Source: Thalassospira lucentensis (GTDB lineage Bacteria > Pseudomonadota > Alphaproteobacteria > Rhodospirillales > Thalassospiraceae). Taken from it: a stretch of 64,000 nt of DNA. Every line of letters starts with the position of its first letter. Position 1 is the first letter of the stretch. Of the stretch, positions 55,641 to 62,064 are shown piece after piece. The stretch covers positions 1 through 64,000 of the forward strand of contig NZ_LPVY01000020.1 of assembly GCF_001613805.1 (NCBI RefSeq). The letters are read 5' to 3'. Below the pieces are notes generated by a model, which saw only the letters and a program-made list of their open reading frames with translations, searched no databases and was not told where the DNA came from. The translations under genes and the position numbers were made by a program.

Positions 55641-56285
55641 TCAGAACTGCTTGATCAGCAATATCCAGTTTTCGCCGGGATTTTCCCAACCTTCCTTGAC
55701 CATCGTGCGTTTGGCGCACTGGGTATAACCATGCCGTTCATAAAGACGGATGGCGCCGGGATTGCCGTCTGATGCGATGATGCTGATCGCCTGTTTTCCG
55801 GCATTGATCGCATTGCGTTCGGCCGCCCGAATCAGTTCCGATCCGACGCCGCGATTGCGAAATGGTGGAAACACCGCCAGCACATTGATGTACCAGCTTT
55901 CAGGTGCCAGACTTTCAAGTTCAAGCAATGGCACGAACATCGCCGGAATTTCCGCCGGATCAACCGGATCAAACGTATCGGGCTGGGCATAGTCAATCAG
56001 GGCACCCATTACCTGATGTTCGCCGAAGGCAAGCGTGGTATTGCGATAGGAAAATCCGCCTTCATCGCGCCGGGCACGCCGATGCCCGACATCCCAGACG
56101 GTCTCGTCGCCTTCAATCATGTTCTGCCAGAGATAAACCGGCAGGCCTTCACCCGCGATATTGATCAGTTTGGCCATGACATCGGCGTCATTTCTACTTG
56201 CGCGCCGTAAATCCATTGGCGGTGTCGGACGGTCGGTATTCGATTGTGCCAATGGCCGCGCGGCTGGTTTAAAGCTCATATTCAT
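55641..56285 (-). CDS. GNAT family N-acetyltransferase
   Basis: 214 aa. The core INVLAVFPPFRNRGVGSELI RAAERNA is the acetyl-CoA binding region (R-x-x-G-V-G), and GNPGAIRLYERHGYTQCAKR TMVKEGW ends the domain. The N-terminal 25 residues, rich in Pro and Arg, are not conserved; a later start near MDLRRASRNDADVMAKLI (about residue 24) is possible. The substrate is unknown. Confidence 0.84.
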   Translation of the reverse strand: MNMSFKPAARPLAQSNTDRPTPPMDLRRASRNDADVMAKLINIAGEGLPVYLWQNMIEGDETVWDVGHRRARRDEGGFSYRNTTLAFGEHQVMGALIDYAQPDTFDPVDPAEIPAMFVPLLELESLAPESWYINVLAVFPPFRNRGVGSELIRAAERNAINAGKQAISIIASDGNPGAIRLYERHGYTQCAKRTMVKEGWENPGENWILLIKQF

Positions 56286-56315
56286 TGCTCGTGTCCCGTT
56301 TCTTTGTCTTTGCGA

Positions 56316-57275
56316 TCATCCCGCCGCCACAAGATGTGGCAGGGCATGTTCGGCCATGGCATGGACATGGCGATGATCGGTTCCGCAACAGCCGCCAATC
56401 ACCGACAGGTTCGGCAGCAATTCGGCCAGATCGCAATAAAGTCGCCCCAGTTCGTCCGGGTTGCCGTCATCAAGATGTTCGCAGGCATCAAGTTCCGCGT
56501 GGCTCAGGCGTGATGCATTGGCCCGAACACCACAAATGCGGTTCTTCCAGGCGTTGTAGCCATCAAGCTTGTCGCGGAAATGGTCTGGATGGGCGCAATT
56601 GATCATGTAATAAACCGGATAGGCACCGGTTTGCGCATCGACCATTTCAATCACGTCGCCAATGCCTTCGCCGCTTGGCAGCCGGCCGTCGGTTTCAACG
56701 GTAAAGGAAATCACGCAGGGCAAATTGCCATCCTTGCAGGCCAGTGCAATTCCAATGGCTTCTTCGGGATAATTCATCGTGATTGCCGATACCATATCGA
56801 CCAGTGTGCCAGTAAAGGTGCGCACCTGAACCGCGTGATAGTCGCGTGCCTGCTGTGCGGTCATGCGGTCAGTCGGGCTATACCCATCGCCACGCGGTCC
56901 GATGCAGCCACTGATCAGGCAGGGGGTTTCGGTAGTCTGATACCGGTCGCGCAGATCGGTCATCATGCGGATTGATTTGTGATTGATATCCGCCAGTTCG
57001 GCTGCACTGTAACCCATGCGCAGGCCCCAGTCGCTATTGGCGCGCCATGTCGGGCTTTCCAGAACAAAGCCGACCTTGGCCTTACGTGCAATTTCGAGGT
57101 AGCGCGCGTAATAGGCGGCAACGCGGTTGCAGCCGTCCTGCGTTTTTAAAAGGTCGAATGACGCGAAATAGGGGATATCGATCCCGTCATGGAAAATCAG
57201 GGTGGTTTCAAGCCCGCCGTCGGTAATGAATTTGGTTGGCGCGAAAGGGGGCAGGTGGGGATGGCGTGCGGTCAT
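56316..57275 (-). CDS. Homocysteine S-methyltransferase family protein
   Basis: 319 aa. The family fold shows ITDGGLETTLIFHDGIDIPY F near the start, LISGCIGPRGDGY (first Cys ligand), and VIGGCCGTDHRHVHAMA near the C-terminus (the paired Cys zinc ligands). All three zinc Cys positions are present. Substrate could be homocysteine or another thiol or selenol such as selenocysteine. The start at 57275 (MTARHPHLPPFAPT) is chosen over an in-frame start at 57389. Confidence 0.87.
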   Translation of the reverse strand: MTARHPHLPPFAPTKFITDGGLETTLIFHDGIDIPYFASFDLLKTQDGCNRVAAYYARYLEIARKAKVGFVLESPTWRANSDWGLRMGYSAAELADINHKSIRMMTDLRDRYQTTETPCLISGCIGPRGDGYSPTDRMTAQQARDYHAVQVRTFTGTLVDMVSAITMNYPEEAIGIALACKDGNLPCVISFTVETDGRLPSGEGIGDVIEMVDAQTGAYPVYYMINCAHPDHFRDKLDGYNAWKNRICGVRANASRLSHAELDACEHLDDGNPDELGRLYCDLAELLPNLSVIGGCCGTDHRHVHAMAEHALPHLVAAG

Positions 57276-57516
57276 GACTTCAAATTTCACATTTTGGGGT
57301 TTCAAAAATTCTACCCGGACGCTATTCAATCCAGCGAAAGAGCAGGGGGCGAAGTCTCGCTTTGGTTGGGTTTTGCTTCTAGTAAGCACGCGGTGCAGTT
57401 TTTTGGAATTACTGAAAACCGTTTGAAAACAATGGAATAGGGAATTGGCGCGGCTTTCTGGCGCATTCGGGGTTATGCTGTGCGACGGAAAACTGTACCG
57501 CCGGTAGGGTAAAGTG

Positions 57517-58182
57517 ATGAACCAGACGATTGATCAGGCTGCCGATGCGGCATCAGAACAGATCAAGGGCAAGGGGGAACGTACCCGCGACCGTATCCTC
57601 GAAATTGCTGAAAAATCGGTGCTGAACAAGGGATTTGGCGCAACCTCGATCGAAGAGCTCATCTGCGAGGCCGGCATCACCAAAAGTGGGTTTTTCTATC
57701 ACTTCAAGGATAAGAACGAACTGGCGCGCGCCCTGTTGCTGCGTCATATCGAACAGGATGAAAAGATCCTTGATCAGGTGTTTTTGCGCGGGCAGGAACT
57801 GGTTGATGATCCGCTGCAGCAATTCCTTATCGGACTTAAAATCCTTGCCGAACTGGTCGAAGATCTGCCGCAGGGGCACCCGGGATGCCTGATCGCGGTT
57901 TACTGTTATCAGGAACGGCTGTTTGACAATGAAGTCCGGCTTTTGAACCGGCAGGCGGTGCTGGGCTGGCGCACACGGTTCCGCGCCATCATTGATCGGA
58001 TCGTTGATGTTTATCCGCCCAACGAGCCGGTCGATCTTGATGAGCTTGCCGACATGGTTTCAACCGTGGTGGAAGGCGGCATCGTGATGTCAAAGGCGCT
58101 TGGTCGCCCGCATATGCTTGCCAATCAGATCATGCTGCTGCGCAGTTTCGTCAAACTGTTGTTTACCCGGCAACCGGTCTGA
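57517..58182 (+). CDS. TetR/AcrR family transcriptional regulator
   Basis: 221 aa. The N-terminal HTH spans about residues 20-66: TRDRILEIAEKSVLNKGFGA TSIEELICEAGITKSGFFYH FKDKNELARALL. A C-terminal helical ligand domain follows. A GTG at 57514 directly precedes the ATG at 57517, which is preferred. It ends only 12 bases from the convergent end of the deiminase operon. The target is unknown. Confidence 0.9.
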   Translation: MNQTIDQAADAASEQIKGKGERTRDRILEIAEKSVLNKGFGATSIEELICEAGITKSGFFYHFKDKNELARALLLRHIEQDEKILDQVFLRGQELVDDPLQQFLIGLKILAELVEDLPQGHPGCLIAVYCYQERLFDNEVRLLNRQAVLGWRTRFRAIIDRIVDVYPPNEPVDLDELADMVSTVVEGGIVMSKALGRPHMLANQIMLLRSFVKLLFTRQPV

Positions 58183-58194
58183 TCGGATGTGGGT

Positions 58195-58845
58195 TCAAGG
58201 CGTGCCGGTTTTGCCGCTGCCGCCAGTACCGACGCTGCCACCAGTGCTCATGACATCCTCAAACAGGATTTCCACTAGCGCCTTGGTGACGTCATTCTGG
58301 CTCAGTTTCCCGTCCGCCATTTCATTGATCGCCGGGAAACTGTCCGCTGACAGGTCAAACAGTTTTGTCTGGATTTCCGATGCGCGCACCGGCCAGTCCG
58401 GATCGATTTGAGCCAGCCCTAGCAACATCGCACGCGCCATCTGATCGGCATTGCCGCTTTTGATCGCGTCCTGAACCTGCGGAATTTGCTTGGCCTCGGA
58501 CACGGCAACGTCAAGTGTCGCCAAAAGGTCGGCCAGTGCCTTTGCCTGATCTTGAACGACACTGTCATTGTAGCTTTTTTCGATTTCTCGCAGTGGGGCC
58601 ACGGCGGCCGAGGTGCCATATGATGACAGATAACTCAGACTGCCAGCCAGTTGCCAGCTCTGCCATTTTTTCCAGGTGCCAGCCTTGAGGTCACCGGTCA
58701 GGGGGGCAGCAAGTGTCCCGCCAAAGGAATGCAGTATCTGACTGACGGAATTGGCTTGCGGGAAACCGGCAACCCTTGATGCCTGTGCTGTTGCCAGATC
58801 AGCGATTTCCTTGAGTGCCTTTTGATAGTCGCTTTGGGTGGTCAT
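58195..58845 (-). CDS. Unrecognised protein, third gene of the deiminase operon
   Basis: 216 aa, no signal peptide or membrane segment. It is mainly helical and Ala-rich, for example YQKALKEIADLATAQASRV and QAKALADLLATLDVAVSEAK. The C-terminus after residue about 198 is a Gly, Ser and Thr tail (STGGSVGTGGSGKTGTP). I do not recognise a family. The ribosome binding site AAAGGA is present. It lies 30 bases after the deiminase gene and is probably co-transcribed, so it may be a partner, substrate or carrier. Confidence 0.75.
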   Translation of the reverse strand: MTTQSDYQKALKEIADLATAQASRVAGFPQANSVSQILHSFGGTLAAPLTGDLKAGTWKKWQSWQLAGSLSYLSSYGTSAAVAPLREIEKSYNDSVVQDQAKALADLLATLDVAVSEAKQIPQVQDAIKSGNADQMARAMLLGLAQIDPDWPVRASEIQTKLFDLSADSFPAINEMADGKLSQNDVTKALVEILFEDVMSTGGSVGTGGSGKTGTP

Positions 58846-58875: not shown

Positions 58876-61200
58876 TCAAGCATCAACTGCCGTCCACCAA
58901 TCTGTATAGCGTGGTGCGCCAAAGGCGGTCTGCCCATCATAGGGAGTGCGCAGTTCGTTGGTGCCACAATGAATTTCACCATGCGCCACATGATACTCGC
59001 TCCAGTCGTCAATGAAGACGCATGTATGCGTAACTCCGGCTGTGGCGAGCTTGGTTTTCAAATCCTGCTCAAACAGGTCATAGCCGTTTTTATCTTCGTT
59101 TGTTGCGGCAGTCATGTCATGTCCGGGGGCTTCGATCCACGGGCCAAAGGGTTTGGGCACATAGAGGCTGTTGTTGCCAACAAACATGTTGGGCATGTCT
59201 GCTGTCAGTGCGCCGGTTCGGAAACCGTTATTCTTGCCCGGAAGAACGTTGAAGCCATAGTCATCCCCCCTTACGCGCCAGCTTATCAGGTCGTTGATAA
59301 GCGTTGGGCGATATTCCCGGATTTGGTGACAGGGATAGAAAATCACAGGCACACGGATGATATCCGTATCAACAAGGTCAAAGGCATTTTTAAGCAGCCG
59401 GACATTACGTTCGATGACCTCTTCGATGCCATTCAAGTTCCAGTTCCGCAATTGCGCATAGGTGTATGCGACGTTTCCACCGGGGTTTGCCAATGGAGCA
59501 TTTCCGTTACCTAATAGGTCATTGATGGTACAGGCAACGCTGGTGGCCCCAATGCGCAAGTTGGTGTAACCAAATGTGCTCGACCCCGTGTTCCACGTAG
59601 GGCGTTGCATGACCTTTGCCGCGCCATGTGCGCCCTGATTGGTTACCATCAGGTCATAGGCAGCCTTGGGGCTGGCAATCAAAAGTTTCCACTTCTTGAA
59701 CGCATTTGCCCCGGCTGCATATGGCACGAACGTCAGCATTTCATCGACATGCCCAACGGACAGCCAATCGGTATCAAGCGTAATGGCTGTCTGCATGTTC
59801 TGGGCATCGAAAAAGGCCCGGCTGGTGGCATTCACACGGCTGTAAACGTTGTTGCCGTAATAGATGCGACCATAAAGATACTCGGTCGTGCCGGTATTGG
59901 TGGTTTTTTTGACCGGTGGGGTTACGCCGAGATTACCACCTGAATTGCCGTCATTGAGATGATCGTTACTGCCAGCCGCGGGATAGGTGATCCCGACATT
60001 CGCGCTAAGCAGCGTCTCATAAACCCAGTTTTGTAGTGCCCGCAGGCGGAAGGTTTTCATGAAAACCTGCTTTTCCTCGACCGTACCGTTATTTCCCGGC
60101 CATGCCGTGTAGCCTGAGACAATTGTGTCGCGCAACCATCTGTCATCACCGTTGGCAAGCGGGCTGTCGGGGTCATCTCGCCAGGTATTGATGTCCAGAT
60201 AGGGTACACCAGTCGGCGTGGCATTCGCAGGGTCGGCAAGGTTGACCGTAACCCCGTCCGCAAGTGCTGCTGCACCAAGTGCTGTGCGGAAACTAGGATT
60301 TCCGGCATCAGCGACATAAAGGACTGTCGACGTTTGCAGATGATGATTACCAATCCACCGCGCCGCAACGATCCGTTCGCCATACCAGTAAGTCCGCACG
60401 GATGGTCCGGTGACTTCCGGCTGCATAACTTCAAGAACAATACGCGCATCTCCGCCAGTAAAGCGATGACCAGCAAATCTTATGGCTTCCATGCCATAGG
60501 AATTTGTCTGCCCCAGTGTCGAGGCATCGATCACTTTTTCAAAGCCGGTTTCAGGGCCGAGAATTTCTGAGCTGTTATTGGCTACGCCGTCGAAAATGCG
60601 GAAATGTTGATTGGCCGGTGCATTGCCAAAAATATTGTTCTTCAGGCTGATGCGTATTTTCCAGTTTCCCGGAATAGGCGGCGTTGCACCAACCTGGACC
60701 AGTTTGATTTGCAGATGGGCAATGTCACGGTTCCGGTCATTGTTGCCATTTACATTCTTGTCCTGATTGTCGGCAAAACCCGCGGGCAGCGTCGTACCAT
60801 CACGGTTGCAGTTCACAGGAATAATGGCGCCAACGCCATTGGTGCCAAAGGTGATTGCCTGTGGTGTGATGCTGTTGAGTGATCCGGCGGCGACATCGAC
60901 CGTTCCATCGCGGTTCCGATCCGTATGTAGGGTAAAATAGGCAACGGCCTGCGTAATGTCCTTGGCGATATTGTCCCCTGTCGCGCGACCTGTTTCGCGA
61001 TAGGGGACAAACCCCGCACCGGAAATCTGAAGTACCCAGTCACCATCGGAAACAACAAAATTGTGATTTTGCGTTCGTGCCAGTGGGGTGAATGTGGGAC
61101 TCCAGACCTGCTGACGATTATTGTTTGTCAAACTCACTCTTACGCTATCGAACGGATAGTTGCCGTCGGGCGCGCTCAGACGCAGCGAGAATTGTGCCAT
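58876..61200 (-). CDS. Protein-arginine deiminase, animal type (PAD)
   Basis: 774 aa (human PADs are about 663). It should convert peptidyl-arginine to peptidyl-citrulline. Aligning by eye to human PAD4, W355 and D358 in DDRWLRD match W347/D350; H484 and D486 in WLSVGHVDEMLTFVP match H471/D473; C745 in HGEIHCGTNELR matches the nucleophile C645. VPKPFGPWIEAPGHDM and FIDDWSEYHVAHG are also PAD-like. A Ca-site-type stretch VNCNRDGTT (129-137) and a DxNxDG loop (94-99) suggest calcium control. The N-terminal about 90 residues are beta-rich. No signal peptide is visible. AGGAGG precedes the ATG, which directly abuts the upstream stop codon. Confidence 0.92.
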   Translation of the reverse strand: MAQFSLRLSAPDGNYPFDSVRVSLTNNNRQQVWSPTFTPLARTQNHNFVVSDGDWVLQISGAGFVPYRETGRATGDNIAKDITQAVAYFTLHTDRNRDGTVDVAAGSLNSITPQAITFGTNGVGAIIPVNCNRDGTTLPAGFADNQDKNVNGNNDRNRDIAHLQIKLVQVGATPPIPGNWKIRISLKNNIFGNAPANQHFRIFDGVANNSSEILGPETGFEKVIDASTLGQTNSYGMEAIRFAGHRFTGGDARIVLEVMQPEVTGPSVRTYWYGERIVAARWIGNHHLQTSTVLYVADAGNPSFRTALGAAALADGVTVNLADPANATPTGVPYLDINTWRDDPDSPLANGDDRWLRDTIVSGYTAWPGNNGTVEEKQVFMKTFRLRALQNWVYETLLSANVGITYPAAGSNDHLNDGNSGGNLGVTPPVKKTTNTGTTEYLYGRIYYGNNVYSRVNATSRAFFDAQNMQTAITLDTDWLSVGHVDEMLTFVPYAAGANAFKKWKLLIASPKAAYDLMVTNQGAHGAAKVMQRPTWNTGSSTFGYTNLRIGATSVACTINDLLGNGNAPLANPGGNVAYTYAQLRNWNLNGIEEVIERNVRLLKNAFDLVDTDIIRVPVIFYPCHQIREYRPTLINDLISWRVRGDDYGFNVLPGKNNGFRTGALTADMPNMFVGNNSLYVPKPFGPWIEAPGHDMTAATNEDKNGYDLFEQDLKTKLATAGVTHTCVFIDDWSEYHVAHGEIHCGTNELRTPYDGQTAFGAPRYTDWWTAVDA

Positions 61201-62064
61201 TTAATCCTCCTGTCCCGGGACTGTTTCTTGGGATGGGGTGTCAAGGGTGTCAGGGCTTTGTTGCTGCGCCTTGCTTGCATTTAGCAATATCGCCAGCCTG
61301 TCATCGATCGTGCCAAGAGACTTGTCCGCAATGATTTCCTGTGCCCATTGTGGGTCGCTTTTCGGATCAAAAGTTTCAGGCCCGTTAGTGAAATAGACGA
61401 TGGCGTAATCGGTAATCCCGTCCGGCGTCTTTACGCCAAGCTTGATGGCCGCATCCCCGGCCGCCTTGCTGGCAATTGCCAGGCTGTCGGCGTCATATCC
61501 GGCAACCGCATCGGGGATGGTGATCGGCAGATAACCGGGCAGCGACGCGATCACATCATCAAGCGACGGTACCGGTGATGGGCTGGGGCTGGGGCCGGGG
61601 GAGGGCGTTGGCGTTGGTGTGGGTTGCGGTTTGGGACCGCAGGGCGATGTCGGCAGGGCAGAAACCGCCTGTGATTCCTGCATCATCAGTTTCGCAACCT
61701 CGTCGGCAAAGCGTTTCTCGGCCTGAAGGCGGCTGGCAGCGCTCGCATCGAATTTCTGTTTGCTCATGATGCTCAGCGTCTTGAACCGTTCGGCATCCTG
61801 TGCGCCAAATGCAGCGAGAAGATTGCCAACCTGCGGGGCGGCATCGGCAATGCGCTGCGACAATGCCTTGGCATCCTTGCCGCTGCCCGCTGCGATCAGG
61901 GTATCGCCATCGCGGGCAAGGCTCTGGTCATTGCTGATCTGCGCATTCAGGCTTTCAAGCTGCTTGGCGGTGCGAATGTCGATCTTGCTGCCGGTGATGG
62001 TGACACTGGTCGGGTATTGCGCCAGTGTTCGGGCAAGGTCGCTGATCCTGTCGGCATAGGCCAT
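61201..62064 (-). CDS. Unrecognised two-domain protein, first gene of the deiminase operon
   Basis: 287 aa, no signal peptide. An N-terminal helical part (about residues 1-140, YADRISDLARTLAQYPTSVT and ASRLQAEKRFADEVAKLMMQ) is joined by a Pro-rich linker (about 149-170, repeats of PTP and PSP) to a C-terminal part starting SLDDVIASLPGYLPITIPDA. I do not recognise either half. Its stop abuts the deiminase start with no gap, so translation is coupled. A role with the deiminase is inferred only from the operon. Confidence 0.75.
   Translation of the reverse strand: MAYADRISDLARTLAQYPTSVTITGSKIDIRTAKQLESLNAQISNDQSLARDGDTLIAAGSGKDAKALSQRIADAAPQVGNLLAAFGAQDAERFKTLSIMSKQKFDASAASRLQAEKRFADEVAKLMMQESQAVSALPTSPCGPKPQPTPTPTPSPGPSPSPSPVPSLDDVIASLPGYLPITIPDAVAGYDADSLAIASKAAGDAAIKLGVKTPDGITDYAIVYFTNGPETFDPKSDPQWAQEIIADKSLGTIDDRLAILLNASKAQQQSPDTLDTPSQETVPGQED

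What the first reader, a model, noticed from the sequence alone, without database searches (positions are those of the whole stretch)
58876..61200. A complete animal-type protein-arginine deiminase in an alphaproteobacterium
The 774-aa product has the vertebrate-type PAD C-terminal domain with every catalytic position filled when aligned by eye to human PAD4: W355, D358, H484, D486 and the nucleophile Cys745 in HGEIHCGTN. It also keeps a calcium-site stretch (VNCNRDG at 129-135). It differs from the short agmatine-deiminase-like enzyme of Porphyromonas. Bacterial homologues of animal PADs are known to exist, but their role in bacteria is largely unexplained. Here it has no visible signal peptide, so cytoplasmic or non-classically exported targets must be considered.
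Basis: partly seen in the sequence, partly recalled or inferred. Interest (0 to 1): 0.85.

Follow-up and report, generated by a model that had tools for sequence, protein, structure and literature searches.

The report
Swappable protein-citrullinating enzyme cassette
A marine bacterium carries an intact relative of the human enzyme that converts protein arginine to citrulline, in a three-gene cassette whose centre is swapped between strains like a weapon or defence gene and which has lost human-type calcium ligands at its active site.

Summary
Window 58876-61200(-) encodes a 774-aa protein-arginine deiminase (Pfam PAD E 1.7e-59, PAD_M 9.5e-8) with every catalytic residue in place and no signal peptide. 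The host is Thalassospira. Such bacterial PADs are published, and this one resembles the fungal/actinobacterial type rather than the animal type. PAD is the middle gene of a three-gene operon (up 61201-62064, PAD, dn 58195-58845) that is present all-or-none in 17 of 29 Thalassospira genomes, always between holC and metN. The module is a swappable allele. Against a same-species genome the flanking genes are 97-100% identical (dS <=0.10), while PAD is about 55% identical with saturated dS. Divergence starts sharply inside up and ends inside dn. Distances of up-C-terminus, PAD and dn correlate with each other (rho 0.79-0.92) but barely with the core genes; the up N-terminus follows the core genes (rho 0.8). 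PAD dN/dS is about 0.1. Catalytic residues are invariant in 17 alleles, yet human calcium-1 and -2 ligands are replaced by invariant Arg357 and Lys382. No type VI secretion accompanies the module. Best reading: a polymorphic conflict enzyme with co-swapped partners and a calcium-decoupled catalytic domain. Target and deployment are unknown.

The parts
58876..61200 (-). PAD gene, 774-aa protein-arginine deiminase, middle gene of the cassette
   Evidence: ORF; Pfam PAD 1.7e-59 and PAD_M 9.5e-8; human PADs in PDB; found in 17 of 29 genomes of the genus
60931..61200 (-). PAD residues 1-90: N-terminal beta domain, not matched by PAD_N, absent from the two Streptomyces PADs read here (these carry hydrophobic, signal-like N-termini instead)
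   Evidence: strands predicted at block pLDDT 78-89; no PAD_N hit; alignment with Streptomyces
60454..60933 (-). PAD_M domain, residues 90-249, with calcium-type loops D94/N96/D98/D102 and N130...D134, D144, D147
   Evidence: Pfam; conservation in 17 alleles
58936..60153 (-). PAD catalytic domain, residues 350-755: D358, H484, D486, C745 invariant; R357 and K382 invariant where human has calcium ligands Q349 and D369
61201..62064 (-). 'up' gene, 287 aa, first gene of the cassette, no family match outside low-complexity sequence; TAA abuts the PAD ATG
61651..62064 (-). up residues 1-138: constant N-terminal domain, inherited with the core genome (rho 0.84 and 0.79)
61552..61650 (-). up residues 139-171: proline-rich linker of variable length, near which allele exchange begins in one pair (G012 vs G023)
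61201..61551 (-). up residues 172-287: variable C-terminal domain that covaries with PAD and dn
58195..58845 (-). 'dn' gene, 216 aa, all-helical (weak HEAT/armadillo-like signal), arginine-poor, covaries with PAD

Best explanation
The locus is a polymorphic three-gene protein-citrullination module. PAD is a working protein-arginine deiminase that converts arginines in proteins to citrulline by the usual Asp-His-Asp-Cys chemistry. Its active site no longer depends on the human-type calcium-1 and calcium-2 ions (invariant Arg357 and Lys382 stand at ligand positions), so control has probably passed from calcium to protein partners. dn, a helical arginine-poor protein, is the likely cognate binding partner or restrainer. 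up is a two-part adaptor: a constant N-terminal domain, a proline-rich linker, and an allele-specific C-terminal domain that covaries with PAD and dn. The unit up-C/PAD/dn is exchanged between strains by homologous recombination at a fixed site, which fits a role in conflict (phage, competitor or predator) rather than housekeeping. Because no protein has a signal peptide and the main injection machines are absent, action inside the producing cell, as defence or damage to an invader's proteins, is slightly preferred over export. Shown: anatomy, co-occurrence, allele exchange, purifying selection, residue losses, absence of type VI secretion. Inferred: enzyme activity, calcium independence, partner roles, conflict function.
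For: Catalytic set invariant in 17 alleles as diverged as 42% identity. dN/dS 0.07-0.18 wherever dS is measurable. Strict co-occurrence: PAD, up and dn in the same 17 of 29 genomes. Clean absence of the cassette in all 12 other genomes, 4 of them with holC and metN adjacent. Allele swap: same-species G007 flanks dS 0.03-0.10 versus PAD saturated, with sharp breakpoints in up near codon 240 and in dn near codon 107. The reverse also occurs: G012/G003 and G023/G024 have flank dS of about 0.4-0.9 but PAD dS 0.12-0.14. Mantel: PAD-dnN 0.92, PAD-upC 0.80, PAD-core 0.13 (not significant), upN-core 0.84/0.79. Calcium ligands: Q349->R357 and D369->K382 in 17/17; E353->V/F/I in 17/17; E351->T359 in 17/17. 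Type VI secretion in 0 of 17 carriers; contractile sheath in 1 of 17. dn is arginine-poor in every allele (R/(R+K) at or below the 13th percentile).
Against: No activity, toxicity, binding or expression data exist here. The structure model of the PAD core is poor (mean pLDDT 48.9), so replacement of calcium by Arg/Lys is read from alignment only. Low arginine content is also seen in periplasmic proteins such as MetQ. PAD_M calcium loops are kept, so some calcium dependence may remain. Exchange at a locus can also reflect selection on immune or surface recognition rather than a weapon. Type I, II, III and IV secretion and vesicle export were not excluded. Covariation of PAD, dn and up-C could be plain linkage within one exchanged block rather than binding.
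Confidence: 0.5

Rival explanations
1. Exported effector: PAD leaves the cell by a non-classical route (lysis, vesicles or an unrecognised transporter fed by up) and citrullinates proteins of competitors or eukaryotic neighbours in calcium-rich seawater; dn protects the producer.
For: Retained PAD_M calcium loops; Streptomyces PADs read here have hydrophobic, signal-like N-termini; up has a proline-rich linker; allele exchange fits competition.
Against: No signal peptide on any of the three proteins; no type VI secretion in any carrier and a contractile sheath in only 1 of 17; the up N-domain is not shared with any other protein of the genome.
Confidence: 0.25
2. Self-modification enzyme: PAD citrullinates the bacterium's own proteins for regulation or surface masking, with dn and up as dedicated substrates or adaptors.
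For: Cytoplasmic location by sequence; purifying selection; stable chromosomal site.
Against: Absent from 12 of 29 genomes, nine of them with nothing in the cassette's place; a regulator is not expected to be swapped to about 55% identity within a species.
Confidence: 0.13
3. Catalytically silent scaffold, like human PADI6, which lacks the calcium ligands; the PAD fold serves as a binding platform.
For: Calcium-1 and calcium-2 ligands lost, as in PADI6 (the PADI6 comparison is from general knowledge).
Against: D358, H484, D486, C745, W355 and R385 invariant in 17 diverged alleles, R387 in 14 of 17.
Confidence: 0.08
4. Nutritional or arginine-catabolic enzyme acting on free arginine or peptides.
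For: Deiminase chemistry could release ammonia (general knowledge; no tool result supports it).
Against: Full PAD_M-PAD_C architecture aligns with protein-directed PADs; no catabolic genes in the cassette; allele swapping unexplained.
Confidence: 0.04

Closest known systems
Animal/late-cyanobacterial three-domain PADs (human PADI1-4)
   Different: No Pfam PAD_N, calcium-1 and calcium-2 ligands replaced by Arg/Thr/Val/Lys, D388 switch variable (N/D/K/G), operon with two unique partners, hypervariable within a species
Fungal/actinobacterial/proteobacterial two-domain PADs (Cummings et al. 2021, PMC8826395)
   Same: His-His connector motif, N/D changes in calcium site 6, loss of calcium sites 2 and 4
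   Different: The paper finds calcium site 1 conserved in fungal and actinobacterial PADs; it is lost here. An extra N-terminal beta domain stands where the two Streptomyces PADs read here carry hydrophobic, signal-like N-termini
Porphyromonas gingivalis PPAD
   Same: Makes peptidyl-citrulline; same superfamily of guanidine-modifying enzymes (general knowledge)
   Different: PPAD is agmatine-deiminase-like, secreted, calcium-independent and acts on C-terminal arginines; no PAD_M domain (general knowledge)
Polymorphic toxin-immunity and other variable-cassette loci
   Same: Constant part plus swapped variable part plus co-swapped downstream partner at a fixed locus
   Different: The swapped part is a whole enzyme gene rather than a toxin tip; no known trafficking domain, no known immunity family, no secretion system found

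Membership tests
Protein-arginine deiminase family (PF03068) | Significant match to the PAD catalytic domain over its curated cut-off | tested here: met
   202.2 bits against a cut-off of 25, E 1.7e-59
Protein-arginine deiminase family (PF03068) | Catalytic Asp, His, Asp, Cys | tested here: met
   D358, H484, D486, C745 in 17/17 alleles
Protein-arginine deiminase family (PF03068) | PAD_M domain | tested here: met
   32.3 bits against a cut-off of 24.8
Protein-arginine deiminase family (PF03068) | Makes peptidyl-citrulline | not testable with these tools
   Needs an assay
Animal/cyanobacterial three-domain PAD clade | PAD_N domain | tested here: inconclusive
   No Pfam PAD_N hit at E<=1, but a confident 90-residue beta domain sits at the same place and structural alignments to human PADs run through it
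Animal/cyanobacterial three-domain PAD clade | Calcium-1 ligands Q349, E353, E411 | tested here: not met
   R357 (17/17), V361 (V/F/I, 17/17), G425 (E in only 4/17)
Animal/cyanobacterial three-domain PAD clade | Calcium-2 ligands and D388/389 switch | tested here: not met
   T359, K382, L386; N401 in the window, D in 7 of 17 alleles
Fungal/actinobacterial PAD clade | Triple-His connector motif | tested here: inconclusive
   N-H-H in 16/17 and S-H-H in 1/17, against H-H-H in Streptomyces KN37 and Q-H-D in NBC_00984
Fungal/actinobacterial PAD clade | Placement in a tree with animal, fungal and actinobacterial PADs | not tested
   Only Streptomyces PADs from outside Thalassospira could be fetched here
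Polymorphic toxin system | Variable region with co-varying downstream partner and constant upstream part | tested here: met
   PAD-dnN rho 0.92, PAD-upC 0.80, upN-core 0.84/0.79, PAD-core 0.13
Polymorphic toxin system | Known trafficking domain or secretion system | tested here: not met
   No signal peptide, no type VI secretion in carriers, contractile sheath in 1 of 17, no family match for up or dn
Polymorphic toxin system | Partner neutralises toxicity | not testable with these tools
   Needs co-expression

The most novel reading that the evidence does not exclude
A bacterial conflict or immune system whose weapon is protein citrullination: a calcium-decoupled PAD controlled by two allele-matched partner proteins and diversified by cassette exchange.
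Probability: 0.3. Interest if true: 0.88.

Novelty: new variant of a known kind. Interest (0 to 1): 0.63.

Why it matters
What bacterial PADs do is largely unexplained. An allele-swapped PAD with two dedicated, co-exchanged partners gives a concrete handle: a conflict role is testable in a culturable marine bacterium. The natural loss of the calcium-1 and calcium-2 ligands, with catalytic residues kept, would if active give a calcium-independent PAD, of interest for how the human enzymes are switched and as a tool enzyme.

Tried and rejected
Type VI secretion delivery: TssB found in 4 of 29 genomes, none a carrier. Contractile-sheath delivery: 1 of 17 carriers. Phage origin: no PAD in phage records or IMG/VR contigs. 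Plasmid carriage: only Streptomyces PADs at about 25% identity; dn not on plasmids. Known defence families: none for the three proteins in PADLOC. dn as a ribosome-inactivating protein: weak Pfam RIP scores (best member E 0.00059; window protein 12.8 bits against a cut-off of 21), covering 68 residues of a helical protein; judged chance. dn fold: Foldseek gave nothing significant; VIA-align rows are mostly armadillo/HEAT-like at Z 5.5-8.6 over residues 1-115, but the model is low confidence (pLDDT 58), so only a hint. up relatives outside the genus: class-wide hits cover only the linker and its neighbourhood, judged low complexity. PAD core structure: poor because only 8 related sequences could be used; active-site geometry therefore not tested by structure. 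An early reading of the D369/N373 columns was off by one and was corrected with the column table.

Full report
Observation. The ORF at 58876-61200 on the minus strand is real and complete: 774 aa, ATG, its start abutting the TAA of the gene upstream with AGGAGG in front. Pfam gives PAD at E 1.7e-59 over residues 350-755 and PAD_M at 9.5e-8 over 90-249, with no PAD_N. Human PADs are found by sequence in the PDB. There is no signal peptide. The genome is Thalassospira.

Is it animal-type? PADs in bacteria are published. Cummings et al. (PMC8826395) report them in 69 proteobacterial species and separate an animal/late-cyanobacterial three-domain clade from a two-domain fungal/actinobacterial/proteobacterial type. 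The window protein has the His-His connector motif of the latter and lacks calcium sites 2 and 4. It is still unusual. That paper finds calcium site 1 conserved in fungal and actinobacterial PADs, and one of the two Streptomyces PADs aligned here keeps Q349, E353 and E411 (the other keeps only Q349). All 17 Thalassospira alleles have Arg357 for Q349, Val/Phe/Ile for E353, Thr359 for E351 and Lys382 for D369 (ligand assignments of the human sites are from general knowledge of the PAD2/PAD4 structures). The PAD_M calcium-type loops D94/N96/D98/D102 and N130...D134, D144, D147 are kept. A 90-residue N-terminal beta domain (block pLDDT 78-89) takes the place where the two Streptomyces PADs carry hydrophobic, signal-like N-termini. 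Whether it is a degenerate PAD_N is open: structural alignments to human PADs run through it, but the profile does not match.

The operon. PAD is flanked on the same strand by up (287 aa) and dn (216 aa), neither with a known family. Across 29 Thalassospira genomes the three genes occur in exactly the same 17. They always sit between holC and metN. All 12 other genomes lack them at that site: four have holC and metN directly adjacent, five carry only a gnat-hmt-tetR block, and three have about 2.4 kb of other DNA, read as a chemotaxis receptor gene in the two examined. dn was found in no other genus among 317 genomes of the order. In broad samples of the class and phylum, no PAD outside Thalassospira passed the family cut-off.

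Allele exchange. Relative to the same-species genome G007, flanking genes have dS 0.03-0.10, up 0.31, dn 0.86, and PAD is saturated. Identity along the DNA is 90-99% up to about codon 240 of up, about 50-78% across PAD, and over 90% again in the last third of dn. G012 versus G023 shows the same with a breakpoint near the proline-rich linker of up. The opposite pattern also occurs: for G012/G003 and G023/G024 the flanks are diverged (dS about 0.4-0.9) while PAD is nearly the same (0.12-0.14). This is horizontal exchange of alleles by homologous recombination, not fast mutation. PAD is under purifying selection (dN/dS 0.07-0.18). Mantel tests show that the up N-domain follows the core genome (rho 0.84, 0.79) while up-C, PAD and dn follow each other (0.79-0.92) and PAD does not follow the core (0.13, p 0.09-0.14). 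Within PAD, pairs such as G028/G007 are mosaics: 49-85% identity in the first half, mostly 90-98% in the catalytic half.

Mechanism. Invariant catalytic residues with purifying selection argue for a working enzyme. Loss of calcium-1 and -2 ligands with invariant basic replacements argues that the switch of the human enzymes does not operate; that an Arg/Lys pair stands in for the ions is inference. Co-exchange of dn and of half of up with PAD suggests allele-matched contacts, though plain linkage could also give it. dn is arginine-poor in every allele, which would fit life beside an active deiminase, but some periplasmic proteins are equally poor. No carrier has type VI secretion and only one has a contractile sheath, so injection by these machines is not the general route. 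I therefore prefer a conflict module, slightly favouring action inside the cell, with dn as restrainer and up as adaptor, at 0.5. Export, self-modification, a silent scaffold and nutrition are the rivals, in that order.

Novelty. A member of the PAD family, but a distinct variant: swappable, operon-bound, and without human-type active-site calcium ligands. No paper found in the searched library connects Thalassospira with PAD (the four papers holding both words only mention them in passing).

Noticed in passing
L030:7189-7320 (G003) and L079:14202-14441 (G021): Partial 3'-end copies of holC lie beside the cassette (G003) or beside a gnat-hmt-tetR block (G021), like footprints of integration or recombination at the holC 3' end; no integrase was seen in the cassette.
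   Followed up: partly
window 55641-58182: The gnat / homocysteine-methyltransferase-like / tetR block is a second, independent presence/absence module at the same holC-metN site.
   Followed up: partly
L084:3552-5282, L086:3717-5408: In G009 and G017 the same holC-metN site holds a methyl-accepting chemotaxis protein gene, so the site is a general insertion hotspot.
   Followed up: partly
L080:5218-7125, L081:5110-7095: PAD genes on large linear Streptomyces plasmids; their N-termini look like secretion signals by eye.
   Followed up: partly
L002:8001-10511 (G011): This PAD allele carries long insertions (837 aa in all) in loops before and inside the catalytic domain.
   Followed up: no
G022:C19:256304-256912: The tetR homologue beside the cassette has an in-frame TGA inside the match and may be a pseudogene or frame artefact there.
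   Followed up: no
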